NCBI RefSeq assembly: GCF_001192795.1
Contig: NZ_DF968181.1
Location: forward strand, 859,101 to 923,100
DNA from: Flexilinea flocculi
Lineage (GTDB): Bacteria; Chloroflexota; Anaerolineae; Anaerolineales; Anaerolineaceae
DNA length: 64,000 nt
Reading direction: 5' to 3'
The notes beneath the pieces are model-generated. The model had not been told where the DNA came from, made no database searches, and saw nothing but the letters and a program-made list of their open reading frames with translations. Made by a program: the position numbers and the translations under genes. Shown in pieces: positions 38,747 to 54,056 of this stretch. Numbering within the stretch: position 1 is the first letter of the stretch; each line of letters begins with the position of its first letter.

Positions 38747-39277
38747 TCATTGAGGAAGTGGTTCATTAACAGGAAAACATCCGCAAATCACAAAAGAACG
38801 TATATGCATATATCTTCCCTTTTCAGGACTGCACATCCATATTTGACCGATTGGGCAAAGCAGTTTATCTTCGTAAAGACCGGCATCTCTTGCCTGTTTT
38901 TCCCATTTTTCTCTTACAAGATCCGCTGCACCGGTTGCTTCAGTCCCGATTCCACAGGTTGGATTTTTGGCTATAGTACTGTAAACATTCCATAATCCAT
39001 CCGGTATGTCCATGCCCATCAATTGAATGGTCGCTGCGGCATTGGCGAGTGCTGTTGCCAAATCCTGCATACGTAATTTGTATGCTTCCATATCTCCTCT
39101 GCAAAGTGCTTCGTCGATTAATGCAGGCAGCTCACGCACCTGATTCAGATAGTACGTTACTGACCCGATCAATTGCGATGGAGTGAGCAACTCAAACTTA
39201 GCTGATACAGACGAAACCGTTCCCAAAAGGACAACCAGGAAGACTAACAGAAAAGCAATTCTTGTCTTTTTATTCAT
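38747..39277 (-). CDS. Secreted Cys-containing protein, tandem paralogue A
   Basis: A 176-residue protein I do not recognise. A clear Sec signal peptide (MNKKTRIAFLLVFLVVLLG, cleavage probably after SVSA) leads to a mature domain of about 150 residues. An alpha-helical part, QLIGSVTYYLNQVRELPA and DLATALANAAATIQLMG, is followed by a Cys-bearing C-terminal part (NPTCGIG, LLCPIGQIWMC, ICGCFPV). The frame is open upstream, but AAAGGAG before this ATG decides the start. Its paralogue at 39917-40447 is almost identical up to IWMC, then diverges. Export and an even Cys count suggest disulphides or metal binding. Confidence 0.75.
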   Translation of the reverse strand: MNKKTRIAFLLVFLVVLLGTVSSVSAKFELLTPSQLIGSVTYYLNQVRELPALIDEALCRGDMEAYKLRMQDLATALANAAATIQLMGMDIPDGLWNVYSTIAKNPTCGIGTEATGAADLVREKWEKQARDAGLYEDKLLCPIGQIWMCSPEKGRYMHIRSFVICGCFPVNEPLPQ

Positions 39278-39522
39278 TCTTTTGCTCCTTTTTTTGTAAG
39301 TCAAAAATTTGAATTGTTATTACGATACGGGTAGATGATTAATGTAACATTTGTTTAATCTTACAATTGTTTGTTGGTTGGATACAAGCCTTTAAATTCT
39401 TTATCAGTACCTCGAAGGTAGACATACTTTTCAAATAGCGAGCGGCAATTCGTAATATGGGGAAAATTCTATAATGTAATGTTGATTTTGTGCTTTATGC
39501 CAATCATTCATGGATTGATCAT

Positions 39523-39916: not shown

Positions 39917-40447
39917 TTATAGATAACCTGGTGTGTTGACAGGGAAACATCCGCAATTCATGCGACGAGGATAATATAAATATTTTGCCTTGTCAGAGCG
40001 GCACATCCATATTTGACCAATAGGACAAGGTTGTTTATCCTCGTAAAGGCCGGCATCCCTTGCCTGCTCTTCCCATTTTTCTCTTACAAGATCCGCTGCA
40101 CCGGTTGCTTCAGTCCCGATACCACAGGTTGGATTTTTGGCAATAGTACTGTAAACATTCCATAATCCATCCGGTATGTCCATGCCCATCAATTGAATGG
40201 TCGCTGCGGCATTGGCGAGTGCTGTTGCCAAATCCTGCATACGGTATTTGTATGCTTCCATATCTCCTCTGCAAAGTGCTTCGTCGATTAATGCAGGCAG
40301 CTCACGCGCCTGATTCAGATAGTACGTTACTGACCCGATCAATTGCGATGGAGTGAGCAACTCAAACTTAGCAGATACGGACGAAACCGTTCCCAAAAGG
40401 ACAACCAGGAATACTAACAGAAAAGCAATTCTTGTCTTTTTATTCAT
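39917..40447 (-). CDS. Secreted Cys-containing protein, tandem paralogue B
   Basis: A 176-residue near-duplicate of the protein at 38747-39277. The same signal peptide, the same helical region (one Val/Ala change in NQARELPA) and the same Cys positions are present. The end differs: after IWMC it reads RSDKAKYLYYPRRMNCGCFP, against SPEKGRYMHIRSFVICGCFP in paralogue A. The Cys pair CGC is kept in both, implying selection on the motif while the surface around it varies. The ribosome-binding site and upstream region are duplicated too. Function is unknown. Confidence 0.75.
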   Translation of the reverse strand: MNKKTRIAFLLVFLVVLLGTVSSVSAKFELLTPSQLIGSVTYYLNQARELPALIDEALCRGDMEAYKYRMQDLATALANAAATIQLMGMDIPDGLWNVYSTIAKNPTCGIGTEATGAADLVREKWEEQARDAGLYEDKQPCPIGQIWMCRSDKAKYLYYPRRMNCGCFPVNTPGYL

Positions 40448-45061: not shown

Positions 45062-45187
45062 AATTTAATCAAAATATAAGAAGCGATTTGACACATCAAA
45101 AGAAAATTTTGTCTTTGTGATGTTTTTATGTTCTATTAAAAACGCCAAAAGGATGAAGAATCCTCCCATTATTTCGAATAGCTGGCA
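45062..45187. repeat. Dispersed palindromic repeat, copy 7 (decayed)
   Basis: The right border TCCTCCCATTATTTCGAATA followed by GCTGG is characteristic. The arms (TTTGTGATGTTTTTATG and the facing sequence) no longer pair well. Confidence 0.45.
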
Positions 45188-45342: not shown

Positions 45343-48300
45343 TTATTTTTTTAGCAGAATCGATGGCGACTGGTTTCCCAGGTCGATACGTACAGCGCGA
45401 CGATTGACTGCCATTAACGCTTCGAAATCACCCAATGCCTGTGCCCTTTCAAGGACTGCAAAAGTCATCCCTTCATTCGGAATTTCGACATCAGTGTGAG
45501 AATTTGCGACAATTTGGATGAATACGCCATTATTCGCTCCTCCTTTGTGGAGTTGCCCTGTCGAGTGTTGAAATCGCGGTCCGAAACCAAGCGTGGTTGC
45601 ACAGGCAGTTTGTTTAAGGATTTCTTCCCGCAAAGATTGCAGTTTATGCAACATGTCCTCGTTTCGTGGAAGATAAGCGTTGATCGCAACGTAATCTTCT
45701 CCAGAATTTGCAATTGTGAGAAATTTCGAGATAAACTCGGCTGGATTCTTCGCTGCAGCCAGTTCTTTCTTAAGGGTTTCATTCGCTGCTTCAGCCAGGC
45801 TATAAAAGACTTTGACTCCATCCTTTTCCCACAAAACCTCCGGTTCGGATAAAATGCCTTTTTCCTTATACTCATTAATTTTTGCCACGGTTCGATTTTT
45901 ACTGTCCTGAACATTGGGCTGGTCAAATGCATTTACCTCTAAAAGCGAACATGCTACTGAAATTGCGATTTCCCATCGGTAAAATTCAGCAAACAGATCC
46001 GGCAGATCGTTTAATTTTATCGTTAGAACCGGTTGCCCGACTTTCATTAATTGGTCTATAAAATCGCATTGTGTTCCAGAGGTTTGAATGTATACAAAAG
46101 CGCGATCCTTAGCATAAACCGATGGATCAGTTTGAGGTTCGATATCAATCGGAATAATTCCTTTTCCATTTTTACCGCTGCTTTCTGCGATCAATTGTTC
46201 AAGCCAGGATCCAAAGGATTCCAGTTCCGGATCTGTCAGAATTGTAAATTTGTCACGTCCGAGCAGTGCCGCGGTACCCATGTACACACCTAAAGCTGCG
46301 CCTTCGTTGCTGGCTACCGGATTCGACGGAGTGCTTTTTTTAGCGATTGCATTTACTTTTTCCAGCACAATCGCCGGATCAATGCCAATCAGTGTGGCTG
46401 GAAGGACTCCAAATGGCGTTATAGCCGAAAAACGACCGCCGACCGCGGGATCGGACAACACGATATTGCGGAAATTTAATTCTTTGGCAATTCGTTCCAA
46501 CTGTGTGCCCGGATCTGTAATGGCAATAAAATGGCTGCCTGCTTTTTCACCCAGCGTATCTTTTGCTCGCTGATAGAAATAGTCAAGGAGAGCCCGGACT
46601 TCTGCCGTCCCACCGGATTTACTGGAGATGATATAGACGGTTTCAGATGTTGGATGGCTGTGATCTGCCTCAAGCACCTGACCGGGGTCTGTGGAATCAA
46701 CAATTTCTAATTTTAAATCGGATATTTCTTTGAAGGTTAATGCCATCACTTCCGGTGCGAGCGAGGATCCGCCCATTCCTAAAAGCAGCACTTTACGGAT
46801 TCCGTCTTCTTTCAGACTCTTTAAAATACTGCGAAATTCCTCGATATTTTTGGCAGTATTCATATGTGCATCCAGCCATCCCAATCGATTGCGGATTTCA
46901 GGATATGCCTGAATATCGAAAGTCCAGACAGTCGGATCTTTTGCAAAAATTCGCGGCAGGATTGAGTTTTCTTCAATTTTCTTAAAATTACTCATAACCT
47001 GATCATACAAATCACCAAGTGATTTTTTAAGGATGTCCGATCGTTTATTAAGGTCGCCAAGCATTGAATTAAATGCGTTTTCAAAAGTATTCACGCCTTC
47101 CTCCTGAAGTTCTTCTGTTATATTCTGCAATGAAATACCGATGGAAGCCAGTTTTGAAAAAACAAGATCGATTTCGTTGTCCGATGCCGGCAATCCGGCT
47201 TTAATACTACTATGATCCAGGGCTGCTTTGAGCGTTTCTGGATCCACTGAGCTGATTGTATTTTCTCCGATGAGGGAATCAATGTAGATCGTATCGGAGT
47301 ATTGATTATTTTTACATCCGGTTGCAGCCCATAATGGACGCTGGATTGTAGCGCCTTTTTTCTGTAGTGCGTTAAAACGTTCCCCGGAAAATATCTTTTT
47401 AAATTGACGATAGATTCTCTGGCAATTTGCTATGCCGACTTTGCCTTTTAACTCTCTCGCAATTGCAGCTTGTTCTTCGGAACCTTCAGTGATAATTTTT
47501 TCAAGAAGCGGGTCTATTTTTGAGTCGATCCAGCATACATAAACCGAAGCAACGGATTGAATCTTGTTAATCGGTTGACCGCTGGCGATTCGGTCTTCCA
47601 GACCGGATATATACGCTTCTGCTGCTTTGATATATTGTTCCTCTGAAAAAATCAATGTGCTGTTAACGTTAATACCGGCAGAAACGAGCTGACGGACTGC
47701 AGAAATCCCGCTTTCTGTAGCAGGAATTTTTACCATAAGGTTAGGACGATTGACTGCAGTCCACGTTTTTCTTGCTTCTGCAACAATTTTTTCTGTTTCA
47801 TGCGAAAAAGAAGGATTGATTTCAAGACTTACATAACCGTCTTTCCCATCTGTTTGAACATAAAGCTCTGTAAACAGACTTGCCGCATCACGGATATCCT
47901 CAACGGATAATTGGGAAAAGATTTTTTCGCAATTCCATCCAGCAAGCGCCATCGGCGCGATTGCTGTATCGTAATCATTCGAGTCTGAAATTGCTTTTCG
48001 AAATGAACAGGGATTCGAGGTCAAACCTCTGATTTCACCCCTTTGGATCATCTCTTTTAATTCACCGTTGCGGATGATGCAGCGCTGAATGTTGTCATAC
48101 CAGATGGATTGTCCTAATTCTAATATCCGTTCGATTTTATTGGAAACCGAAAAATCGCCCCGTTCAATACTTTTAATTTTTTCAAATCGACGGATCTGAT
48201 TAGGTTTATTATTGAATTTTGCATTTAGAAAAGCAGTGACCAGTTCACGGGCAACTTCCGATCCAATAATTCGTGAGCCAAGACACAATACATTCATGCC

Positions 48301-48603
48301 ATCGTGTTCTACTCCCTGATGTGCAGAATAGGTATCATGACAAACACTTGCGTAGATTCCAGGGATTTTATTGGCTGCGATACAAACTCCGACTCCGGAA
48401 CCACAAATGAACACACCTGCCTCAGCTTTACCGTTTATTATTTTATCTGATCCTAATTTTACATAATCCGGAAAATCAGCGCTTTCTTTGGAATAAGTAC
48501 CGACATCGATGACATCGCATCCTGTTTTTTTTATCGTATCAATAACACACTCTTTTAGTTCAAAACCGGCATGATCACATGCAACTGCAATCGTTTTTTT
48601 CAC
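45343..48603 (-). CDS. Triple fusion: ribose-5-phosphate isomerase B, transaldolase, glucose-6-phosphate isomerase
   Basis: One polypeptide of 1086 residues joining three pentose-phosphate/glycolysis enzymes. Residues 1-145 are RpiB, with VACDHAGFELK, catalytic Cys in FICGSGVGVCIAAN (66-79) and NVLCLGSRI. Residues about 155-525 are transaldolase, with GLTSNPCSF and the Schiff-base lysine in LMVKIPATESG (about Lys292). Residues about 545-1086 are Pgi, with LLGMGGSSLAPEV, IISSKSGGTAEV and a C-terminal FGPRFQHSTGQLHKGG. Tal-Pgi fusions are known; the added RpiB is the unusual part. The frame runs upstream to 48771 through a palindromic repeat, but the GTG at 48603 after AAGGAAAG begins the RpiB domain exactly and is the likely start. 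Confidence 0.92.
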   Translation of the reverse strand: MKKTIAVACDHAGFELKECVIDTIKKTGCDVIDVGTYSKESADFPDYVKLGSDKIINGKAEAGVFICGSGVGVCIAANKIPGIYASVCHDTYSAHQGVEHDGMNVLCLGSRIIGSEVARELVTAFLNAKFNNKPNQIRRFEKIKSIERGDFSVSNKIERILELGQSIWYDNIQRCIIRNGELKEMIQRGEIRGLTSNPCSFRKAISDSNDYDTAIAPMALAGWNCEKIFSQLSVEDIRDAASLFTELYVQTDGKDGYVSLEINPSFSHETEKIVAEARKTWTAVNRPNLMVKIPATESGISAVRQLVSAGINVNSTLIFSEEQYIKAAEAYISGLEDRIASGQPINKIQSVASVYVCWIDSKIDPLLEKIITEGSEEQAAIARELKGKVGIANCQRIYRQFKKIFSGERFNALQKKGATIQRPLWAATGCKNNQYSDTIYIDSLIGENTISSVDPETLKAALDHSSIKAGLPASDNEIDLVFSKLASIGISLQNITEELQEEGVNTFENAFNSMLGDLNKRSDILKKSLGDLYDQVMSNFKKIEENSILPRIFAKDPTVWTFDIQAYPEIRNRLGWLDAHMNTAKNIEEFRSILKSLKEDGIRKVLLLGMGGSSLAPEVMALTFKEISDLKLEIVDSTDPGQVLEADHSHPTSETVYIISSKSGGTAEVRALLDYFYQRAKDTLGEKAGSHFIAITDPGTQLERIAKELNFRNIVLSDPAVGGRFSAITPFGVLPATLIGIDPAIVLEKVNAIAKKSTPSNPVASNEGAALGVYMGTAALLGRDKFTILTDPELESFGSWLEQLIAESSGKNGKGIIPIDIEPQTDPSVYAKDRAFVYIQTSGTQCDFIDQLMKVGQPVLTIKLNDLPDLFAEFYRWEIAISVACSLLEVNAFDQPNVQDSKNRTVAKINEYKEKGILSEPEVLWEKDGVKVFYSLAEAANETLKKELAAAKNPAEFISKFLTIANSGEDYVAINAYLPRNEDMLHKLQSLREEILKQTACATTLGFGPRFQHSTGQLHKGGANNGVFIQIVANSHTDVEIPNEGMTFAVLERAQALGDFEALMAVNRRAVRIDLGNQSPSILLKK

Positions 48604-48649
48604 GTGGGCTTTCCTTGAAATGATGTAATCTGTTTGATAACCAGTAATT

Positions 48650-48775
48650 CGAAATATCGACTCGCTATTCGAAAAAGAGAGAAACACTTTTTGTTGTGAT
48701 GTTTTTATGAGAAGAACCATCACAACAACAAAGAATCCTCTCCATATTTCGGATTTTTGTCTGATAACCAAATAA
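48650..48775. repeat. Dispersed palindromic repeat, copy 9
   Basis: TTGTTGTGATG (48691-48701) pairs with CATCACAACAA (48718-48728). The left borders are AATTCGAAATATCGA and CTATTCGAAAAAGAG; the right border is AATCCTCTCCATATTTCGGA. It lies 47 bases upstream of the triple-fusion start. A further remnant (AGCTATTCGAAATATAG) is at 48813-48829. Confidence 0.72.
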
Positions 48776-52778: not shown

Positions 52779-54056
52779 TTTTTCTGTAAATTAGAGTCTG
52801 AAATATCCATAGATCTTTAAGAATTCATAAACTTGCCAGTACAAAAATGTTTTCCGATCTGCCATTCTTCGCAGGTCTCCATCAGTAATGCCGAGACCAA
52901 CCTGAGACAAGAAGCTTGATTTGGAAACACACCAACCACTCTTGTCCGTCTGCGAATCTCTTTATTAATCCTCTCCAGACTATTGGTTGTTCGTATCGTT
53001 CTTCGATGTTCCAATGGAAAATCAAAAACCAAAAAACCCTCAAAAAGGTTATTTTCGAGCCAAGATGAAAGCCGCGGAGCAGAAATAGCATACTTCTGGA
53101 TGGCGCTCTGCAAGAGCTCTTCTGCTGTCTTTCGATCAGGAGCATTAAATATGGCTCTGATGTCTGCTGCCACTTCCAATCTCATCGATTGTCTGGGCAG
53201 ATAAGCTCCGGCATTCTGTTGCAGATGGAACTGACACCGTTGCCAGGGAATACCGCCAAAAACTGCTCTTCTGGCTGCCCCTAGACCTTCATGGTCATCA
53301 CTGATAATCAGCTTTATTCCGTGTAACCCTCGCTCTTTTAGACTCTTTAAAAATGCTTTCCAATGTGTTTCATGCTCACTAAGCGAAACTGAAACCCCAA
53401 GTATTTGCCGTTCGCCTTCTGGCGTAATGCCAGAGGCCACCAAAACCGCTGCATCTCTTACTTGTCCTGCTTCACGAATCTTCTCATATCGGGCATCCAC
53501 AAAGAGATAGCTGATCTCTCCTAATGGCCTTTCACGCCATTCTTGCAGTACTTCGTCCAATTGCGCTGTTGCCCGGCTGACTTGTGTGGCTGAGACCTCA
53601 ATCCCACAAAGCTGTTCCGTAATGGTTTTTACCTTCCGAGTCGATACTCCCTGTACATACATTTCAGCCAGTGTGATCGTAAGGGCTCTTTCACTTCGCA
53701 GTCCCTTTTCCAGAGCACTGGGATAAAAACCACCCTCTCTAACCTGTGGAACTGCAAAGGTAATGTTTCCTATCCTGGTCTGTATCGTCTTCGGTTTGAA
53801 ACCATTTGCATGTCCCTTGCGATCCTTTGTGCGTTCGTACTGTTCAGCTTGTAAGTACCTTGATCTTTCTACTTGCATGGCGTTATTTATCAGCACTCGC
53901 ATCATTTCTGGAATTGCTTCCAATCCTTTTTCCGCTATTTCCTCTGTAAAGGTATAATTATTTGGGTGAGTCATTTCTAGTCTCCTTTTATGGTTTGGTT
54001 ACTATAAGGATACTTCTGACTCACCTCTTTTGTTAAGGTTCTTTATTTTACAGAAA
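52779..54056 (-). mobile_element. IS256-family insertion sequence
   Basis: The transposase gene is flanked by short imperfect inverted ends. TTTTTCTGTAAATTAGAG is at about 52780-52797; the facing end at about 54040-54056 reads, in complement, ATTTTCTGTAAAATAAAG. Exact ends and a target duplication could not be fixed. It sits between the PD-(D/E)XK-like gene and the small duplicated protein gene, without interrupting either. Confidence 0.75.
52817..53974 (-). CDS. IS256-family (mutator) transposase
   Basis: A complete DDE transposase of 385 residues that moves the surrounding element. Family features are visible: GFKPKTIQTRIGNITFAVPQ near the N-terminus, LFVDARYEKIRE (first Asp of the catalytic triad, about 157), IKLIISDDHEGLGAARRAVF (second Asp), the WQRCQFHLQQNAGAYLP region with its conserved C..H, and RTTNSLERINKEIRRR with the catalytic Glu. 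The reading frame is undamaged, so the element may be active. AAAGGAGAC precedes the start. Confidence 0.94.
   Translation of the reverse strand: MTHPNNYTFTEEIAEKGLEAIPEMMRVLINNAMQVERSRYLQAEQYERTKDRKGHANGFKPKTIQTRIGNITFAVPQVREGGFYPSALEKGLRSERALTITLAEMYVQGVSTRKVKTITEQLCGIEVSATQVSRATAQLDEVLQEWRERPLGEISYLFVDARYEKIREAGQVRDAAVLVASGITPEGERQILGVSVSLSEHETHWKAFLKSLKERGLHGIKLIISDDHEGLGAARRAVFGGIPWQRCQFHLQQNAGAYLPRQSMRLEVAADIRAIFNAPDRKTAEELLQSAIQKYAISAPRLSSWLENNLFEGFLVFDFPLEHRRTIRTTNSLERINKEIRRRTRVVGVFPNQASCLRLVSALLMETCEEWQIGKHFCTGKFMNS

What the first reader, a model, noticed from the sequence alone, without database searches (positions are those of the whole stretch)
45343..48603. Three-enzyme fusion RpiB-Tal-Pgi in one polypeptide
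Seen: catalytic motifs of ribose-5-phosphate isomerase B, transaldolase and glucose-6-phosphate isomerase follow each other in one uninterrupted frame, with all key residues kept. Known: Tal-Pgi fusions exist, and RpiB is normally a separate protein of about 150 residues. Inference: one protein would link ribose 5-phosphate, the transaldolase exchange and fructose 6-phosphate/glucose 6-phosphate, allowing carbon to be routed between pentoses and glycolysis with channelling or fixed stoichiometry. Many anaerobes lack the oxidative branch, so such a module could be their core pentose route.
Basis: partly seen in the sequence, partly recalled or inferred. Interest (0 to 1): 0.75.

Follow-up and report, generated by a model that had tools for sequence, protein, structure and literature searches.

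The report
Triple sugar-enzyme fusion, decaying middle domain
An anaerobic Chloroflexota bacterium encodes one large protein that joins three sugar-phosphate enzymes, but the middle enzyme has lost part of its active site and looks dead in close relatives, so it may survive mainly as a built-in spacer between the other two.

Summary
In detail: 45343-48603 (-) is one 1086-residue frame, RpiB(1-147)-Tal(~161-525)-Pgi(~541-1078). The same single frame occurs in 10 of 14 genomes held for the genus (nearest named record a Flexilinea MAG), and in two genomes of a second, separate Chloroflexota lineage. Relatives carry rpiB just upstream of a separate tal-pgi gene, often in frame behind one stop codon, so stop loss is the likely origin. 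RpiB and Pgi are the only copies found in this genome; rpiA and zwf were not found.

'All key residues kept' is wrong for Tal. The Schiff-base Lys stays, but the acceptor-phosphate Arg (TalB R181) is Trp, the matching Ser is Ala and F178 is Tyr. All 92 aligned Tal domains not joined to RpiB keep these residues; one further unjoined case (G027) is dead. Five of the nine other fused proteins of the genus have lost the Lys, as has one of two in the second lineage, while RpiB and Pgi stay intact. One single-contig genome (99% complete) has no other transaldolase-family match.

Best reading: two working isomerases joined by a domain turning into a pseudo-transaldolase, with transaldolase duty bypassed, perhaps through PPi-phosphofructokinase. 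Channelling is untested. No biochemistry was done.

The parts
45343..48603 (-). RpiB-Tal-Pgi fusion gene, 1086 codons plus stop, GTG start
48609..48616 (-). ribosome-binding-like AAGGAAAG, 5 bases before the GTG
   Evidence: read by eye
48163..48603 (-). RpiB domain, residues 1-147
   Evidence: keeps 31 of 32 family-invariant positions
48124..48162 (-). junction, residues 148-160, no in-frame ATG, GTG or TTG
47029..48123 (-). transaldolase domain, residues 161-525, altered acceptor-phosphate site
   Evidence: keeps 57 of 74 family-invariant positions
47728..47730 (-). Lys292, Schiff-base lysine position (TalB K132), kept in this species
47539..47541 (-). Tyr355 at the TalB F178 position
47530..47532 (-). 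Trp358 at the TalB R181 (phosphate-binding) position
   Evidence: role of R181 from passages of PMC3962226
47323..47325 (-). Ala427 where 92 of 92 aligned unjoined Tal domains have Ser (W-A-S-T motif; match to TalB S226 is by motif)
45370..46983 (-). Pgi domain of the Tal-Pgi type, residues 541-1078
   Evidence: keeps 79 of 80 family-invariant positions

Best explanation
The ORF is a real RpiB-Tal-Pgi fusion that arose once in this genus from neighbouring rpiB and tal-pgi genes, most simply by loss of the stop codon between them (shown: single frame, one clade, split relatives; inferred: the exact mutation). The two end domains are the working ribose-5-phosphate and glucose-6-phosphate isomerases (inferred from full conservation and from being the only copies found). 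The middle domain keeps the Schiff-base lysine here but has lost the acceptor-phosphate Arg and Ser, so ordinary transaldolase activity with phosphorylated acceptors should be strongly impaired (inferred). Sister species show the next stage: the lysine and most other active-site residues are gone, yet the domain stays in frame at nearly full length. The domain is most likely held in place as a structural spacer between two isomerases, and the transaldolase step is bypassed or supplied elsewhere, for example by PPi-phosphofructokinase plus aldolase through sedoheptulose bisphosphate (inferred).
For: Single frame in 10 of 14 genus genomes, one clade with support 1.000. 28 junctions outside the genus read with rpiB and tal-pgi in the same frame are all split by stops, 20 of them by exactly one. 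Active-site loss in fused proteins against 92 of 92 aligned unjoined Tal domains with D17, N35, E96, K132, T156, F178, R181 and the Ser and Lys of the WAST..K motif kept. Family-invariant positions kept in the ten: RpiB 94-97%, Pgi 94-100% apart from truncated G011, Tal 27-93%. Tal/Pgi branch-length ratio 0.73 in unfused relatives against 4.97 within the clade of 8; G004 and G009 tips about 11 and 9 times their Pgi branches. Even a Lys-less pair, G002-G011, shows purifying selection on Tal (26 synonymous to 10 nonsynonymous changes, p 1e-10). G004, one contig and 99% complete, has no other PF00923 match. PPi-type GGDD phosphofructokinase in G000 and G004. SBP bypass is known from clostridia (PMC7029132, abstract and section 11).
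Against: The window's own Tal domain keeps 8 of 11 active-site residues including the lysine, and evolves under dN/dS 0.066 against G010, no looser than Pgi (0.062), so it could still be catalytic. In the genus clade active-site residues are not lost faster than other invariant positions (Fisher p 0.10 to 1 for the ten), so this looks like general relaxation, not a selective shut-off; only G533 shows preferential active-site loss (p 0.002). RpiB fusion is not required for Tal death: G027 has a dead Tal in an unjoined Tal-Pgi and a separate intact Tal. The unjoined sample came from high-scoring hits and so under-samples dead cases. No structure model was usable (pLDDT 41.5 and 37.5). No assay.
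Confidence: 0.6

Rival explanations
1. Trifunctional enzyme: all three domains are active in this species and link pentose and hexose phosphates, possibly with channelling.
For: One polypeptide with all three domains; Tal keeps Lys, Asp, Asn and Glu; Tal dN/dS 0.066 against G010; G007, G013 and, in the other lineage, G474 have 10-11 of 11 active-site residues. A Tal/Pgi bifunctional enzyme from Gluconobacter is cited in PMC7092467 (passage and reference entry).
Against: R181W, Ser to Ala and F178Y in the window protein; Lys lost in 5 of 10 genus members; genera-mates live without any intact transaldolase-family match (G004). No evidence for channelling.
Confidence: 0.18
2. Repurposed Tal: the G000/G010/G003 Tal domain is active but acts on different acceptors, for instance non-phosphorylated aldehydes, or as a dihydroxyacetone aldolase, because its phosphate site is remade.
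For: Lys, Asp, Asn and Glu kept with Y355 and W358 fixed in all three species of the subclade; strong purifying selection. In E. coli TalB, F178Y gives aldolase activity and changes at R181 favour a non-phosphorylated acceptor (passages of PMC3962226).
Against: The third phosphate-site position varies inside the subclade (K, S, I), more like decay than a new site. Small transaldolase-family enzymes of the genome also carry Tyr at this position, so Tyr alone is not diagnostic. The sister clades went on to lose the Lys.
Confidence: 0.2
3. Artefact: an assembly error or sequencing error removed a stop between neighbouring genes.
For: Relatives do carry the genes side by side, often in frame behind one stop.
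Against: The same open junction is present in 10 genus genomes at 52-88% identity, including a one-contig genome, and again in G474 and G533.
Confidence: 0.02

Closest known systems
Bifunctional transaldolase/phosphoglucose isomerase (NCBIfam NF007080, PRK09533)
   Same: Same Tal-Pgi order over residues 154-1078; 1024 bits against a cut-off of 712.
   Different: Carries an RpiB domain in front, and its Tal phosphate site is altered.
RpiB, ribose-5-phosphate isomerase B (TIGR01120, PRK05571)
   Same: Full-length domain, above both cut-offs (141.1/138.65 and 168.6/135); 31 of 32 family-invariant positions kept.
   Different: Normally a stand-alone protein; here fused, with no separate copy found in the genome.
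Transaldolase of the mycobacterial type (TIGR00876; structures 3r5e, 7bbw)
   Same: 319 bits against 233.75; Schiff-base Lys position kept.
   Different: R181, F178 and the WAST Ser are replaced; relatives are dead.
Sedoheptulose bisphosphate pathway of clostridia without transaldolase (PMC7029132, abstract and section 11)
   Same: PPi-type PFK motif present and oxidative entry enzyme zwf not found in this genome.
   Different: Only inferred here; no metabolite or enzyme data, and aldolase was not searched for.
Pseudoenzymes in general (PMC10211241, seen in a search listing only)
   Same: Catalytic residues lost while the domain stays in the protein.
   Different: Here the dead domain is the middle part of a metabolic fusion, and decay stages are visible within one genus.

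Membership tests
NF007080 bifunctional Tal/Pgi | Score above the curated cut-off over Tal and Pgi | tested here: met
   1024.3 bits, cut-off 712, residues 154-1078
NF007080 bifunctional Tal/Pgi | Transaldolase active site intact (residue roles partly recalled) | tested here: not met
   8 of 11 positions kept; F178Y, R181W, WAST Ser to Ala
NF007080 bifunctional Tal/Pgi | Both enzyme activities | not testable with these tools
   needs an assay
RpiB | Score above the curated cut-off | tested here: met
   TIGR01120 141.1 against 138.65, a narrow pass; PRK05571 168.6 against 135
RpiB | Family-invariant residues kept | tested here: met
   31 of 32; the exception is R62A, changed in all ten fused proteins of the genus
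Transaldolase (TAL_FSA) | Schiff-base lysine | tested here: met
   Lys292; lost in 5 of the 9 other fused genus members
Transaldolase (TAL_FSA) | Acceptor-phosphate Arg and Ser (two Arg and one Ser in TalB, PMC3962226 passages) | tested here: not met
   Trp358 and Ala427; the second TalB Arg could not be matched with confidence
Phosphoglucose isomerase (PF00342) | Score and conserved Glu and Lys motifs | tested here: met
   39.2 bits, cut-off 22; QLIAESSGK and NAFDQPNVQDSK line up with E. coli QGNMESNGK and FTFDQWGVELGK (catalytic roles recalled)
Phosphoglucose isomerase (PF00342) | Catalytic His (recalled as H388 in rabbit numbering) | tested here: inconclusive
   the E. coli segment with this His has no clear counterpart in the alignment of 49 Tal-Pgi-type Pgi domains, so it is a property of the family, not of this protein

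The most novel reading that the evidence does not exclude
A transaldolase caught turning into an internal scaffold: once RpiB, Tal and Pgi are welded together in organisms that can bypass transaldolase, the middle enzyme dies repeatedly but cannot be deleted, and selection keeps it as the strut that positions two dimeric isomerases. Different species of one genus show the successive stages (intact, phosphate site lost, lysine lost, hardly recognisable), and the same happened independently in a second lineage (G533).
Probability: 0.42. Interest if true: 0.68.

Novelty: new variant of a known kind. Interest (0 to 1): 0.55.

Why it matters
If true, it gives a datable series of enzyme death inside a central-metabolism fusion, in which the flanking enzymes are internal controls in the same polypeptide. 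It would show that a fused enzyme domain can be kept for structure alone, add Chloroflexota anaerobes to the organisms that run the non-oxidative pentose pathway without transaldolase, and warn that annotating such genes as transaldolase from domain hits overstates pathway completeness.

Tried and rejected
Assembly or annotation artefact: rejected because ten genus genomes and two outside genomes show the open junction.

Fusion in G018, G032, G034, G049, G014 and G060: suspected, rejected; each has a stop between the genes (the 'open frame' of the search counts through stops). The 20 further spanning rows fetched from the list, and G353 and G378, are also split. The match list was capped, so more such rows may exist.

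Preferential loss of active-site residues as proof of a selected shut-off: tested and not found in the ten genus members (p 0.10 to 1); found only in G533 (p 0.002).

RpiB fusion as the cause of Tal death: weakened by G027, an unjoined Tal-Pgi with a dead Tal.

The single genome-contig scan used a lone protein as query and found only 2 relatives; it gives the nearest name but no view of distribution outside the phylum.

A first TalB table was off by one residue; one search replaces it. An ultrafast-bootstrap tree timed out; FastTree was used.

Literature: ten searches found no paper whose listing describes an RpiB-Tal-Pgi fusion or its dead Tal; the library is open-access only.

Full report
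Observation. The minus-strand frame at 45343-48603 is open and encodes 1086 residues from a GTG with a good ribosome-binding-like sequence. Pfam and NCBIfam place RpiB at 1-147, a mycobacterial-type transaldolase at about 154-525 and a Tal-Pgi-type phosphoglucose isomerase up to 1078. Between residue 125 and residue 185 the only in-frame start codon is the ATG at 185, inside Tal.

Origin of the organism. The window lies in a genome of 3.5 Mb in 3 contigs, 97% complete. The closest named relative is a Flexilinea sp. MAG whose protein is 88% identical; its contig has the same length and match position as genome G010. Flexilinea belongs to Anaerolineaceae, Chloroflexota.

The fusion is real and has two origins. 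Of 14 genomes held for the genus, 10 carry the single frame; G005, G006, G008 and G012 do not. The ten form one clade with support 1.000 in a tree of RpiB plus Pgi (49 of 61 loci had all three domains) and in a Pgi tree of 101 sequences. In a sample of 400 genomes of the phylum, G474 and G533 carry a second fusion; they group together with support 0.983, far from the genus clade. Loss of a stop is thus the simplest route, but the mutation itself was not reconstructed.

The transaldolase domain is not intact. Aligned with E. coli TalB and 3r5e, the window protein keeps D170, N197, E261, K292, N314, T316 and S353, but has Tyr355 for F178, Trp358 for R181 and Ala427 for the Ser of the WAST motif. 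All 92 unjoined Tal domains in the alignment keep K132, E96, N35, F178, R181 and the Ser; two more read by motif keep Lys and Arg. PMC3962226 (passages) states that two Arg and one Ser of TalB hold the acceptor phosphate, that R181 was confirmed as important, and that F178Y turns TalB into an aldolase. Role labels for the other residues are partly recalled.

Stages within the genus. G013 keeps 11 of 11 active-site positions and G007 10; G000 8, G010 and G003 7 (Lys kept); G002 and G011 7 with Lys to Gly; G001 4 with Lys to Ser; G004 3 with Lys to Ala; G009 0. The single Arg scored as kept in G004 lies in a poorly alignable stretch. On the tree, whose inner nodes are weakly supported (0.68 to 0.85), this needs at least three separate losses of the lysine if it is never regained. 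In the second lineage G474 keeps 11 of 11 and G533 only 2. The domain stays at 339-365 residues in all ten. RpiB keeps 30-31 of 32 family-invariant positions in the ten and Pgi 75-80 of 80 (G011 58, cut by the contig end), while Tal keeps 20 to 69 of 74. The Tal/Pgi branch-length ratio is 0.73 across unfused relatives and 4.97 within the clade of 8.

Still under constraint. For G000 and G010 dN/dS is 0.048 (RpiB), 0.066 (Tal), 0.062 (Pgi); for the Lys-less pair G002 and G011 it is 0.152, 0.099 and 0.059; neutrality is rejected for Tal in both pairs (p 3e-47 and 1e-10), and Tal does not differ from Pgi (p 0.41 in both). So a domain without its catalytic lysine is still being kept, which favours a structural role; but the same numbers mean that constraint on the window's Tal cannot show that it is active.

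Results against this reading. Active-site positions are not lost faster than other invariant positions in the ten genus members (p 0.10 to 1). G027 has a dead Tal in a Tal-Pgi protein that is not joined to RpiB, with an intact stand-alone Tal elsewhere, so death is not confined to RpiB fusions; and my unjoined sample was drawn from high-scoring hits.

Pathway setting. In G000 the only RpiB-family and only PGI-family matches are in this ORF. No rpiA in 14 of 14 genus genomes. No zwf in G000 and in 12 of 13 genus genomes searched. Transketolase is present as half-size N-terminal ORFs. Two small transaldolase-family genes exist in G000; one passes the fructose-6-phosphate aldolase equivalog cut-off, the other scores best against aldolase models below cut-off, on partial sequences. 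They seem to carry Gln where transaldolases have Glu, read by eye because the alignment was two columns off. G009, whose fused Tal is dead, has a separate intact Tal. G004, one contig and 99% complete, has no other PF00923 match. All 14 have PF00365 phosphofructokinases; one in G000 and one in G004 carry the GGDD motif recalled as PPi-type. PMC7029132 (abstract and section 11) describes clostridia that use PPi-PFK and aldolase instead of transaldolase. Aldolase and gnd were not searched.

A mirror case. G007 and G013, which keep the Tal site, also have a separate standard pgi, and G013's fused Pgi has lost two otherwise invariant His. With two genomes this is only a hint that whichever activity is redundant decays.

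Verdict. A real and new domain architecture, a new variant of the known Tal-Pgi fusion. The interesting part is not channelling but the decay of the middle enzyme in a protein whose ends stay intact.

Noticed in passing
L158 (G027 contig C92) and L159 (contig C9): A Tal-Pgi protein not joined to RpiB has a dead Tal domain while the genome holds a separate intact transaldolase.
   Followed up: partly
L023 (G013), L099: In G013, which has a separate standard pgi, the fused Pgi domain has lost two otherwise invariant His of the RFxHSTGQxHKGG motif.
   Followed up: partly
window 45116-45176 and 48695-48751: The same intergenic motif pair (TGTGATGTTTTTATG and AAGAATCCTC..ATTTCG) flanks the fusion gene on both sides; shuffles expect 0.35 and 0 matches.
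   Followed up: partly
window 38747-39304 and 39917-40447 (-): Two near-identical genes in tandem for small proteins with a signal-peptide-like start; function not searched.
   Followed up: no
window 52817-53974 (-): ORF of 385 aa that looks like an IS256-type transposase (recalled resemblance, not searched).
   Followed up: no
RpiB residue 62 (window 48418-48420): An Arg near-invariant in 45 unfused RpiB relatives is changed in all ten fused proteins of the genus.
   Followed up: no
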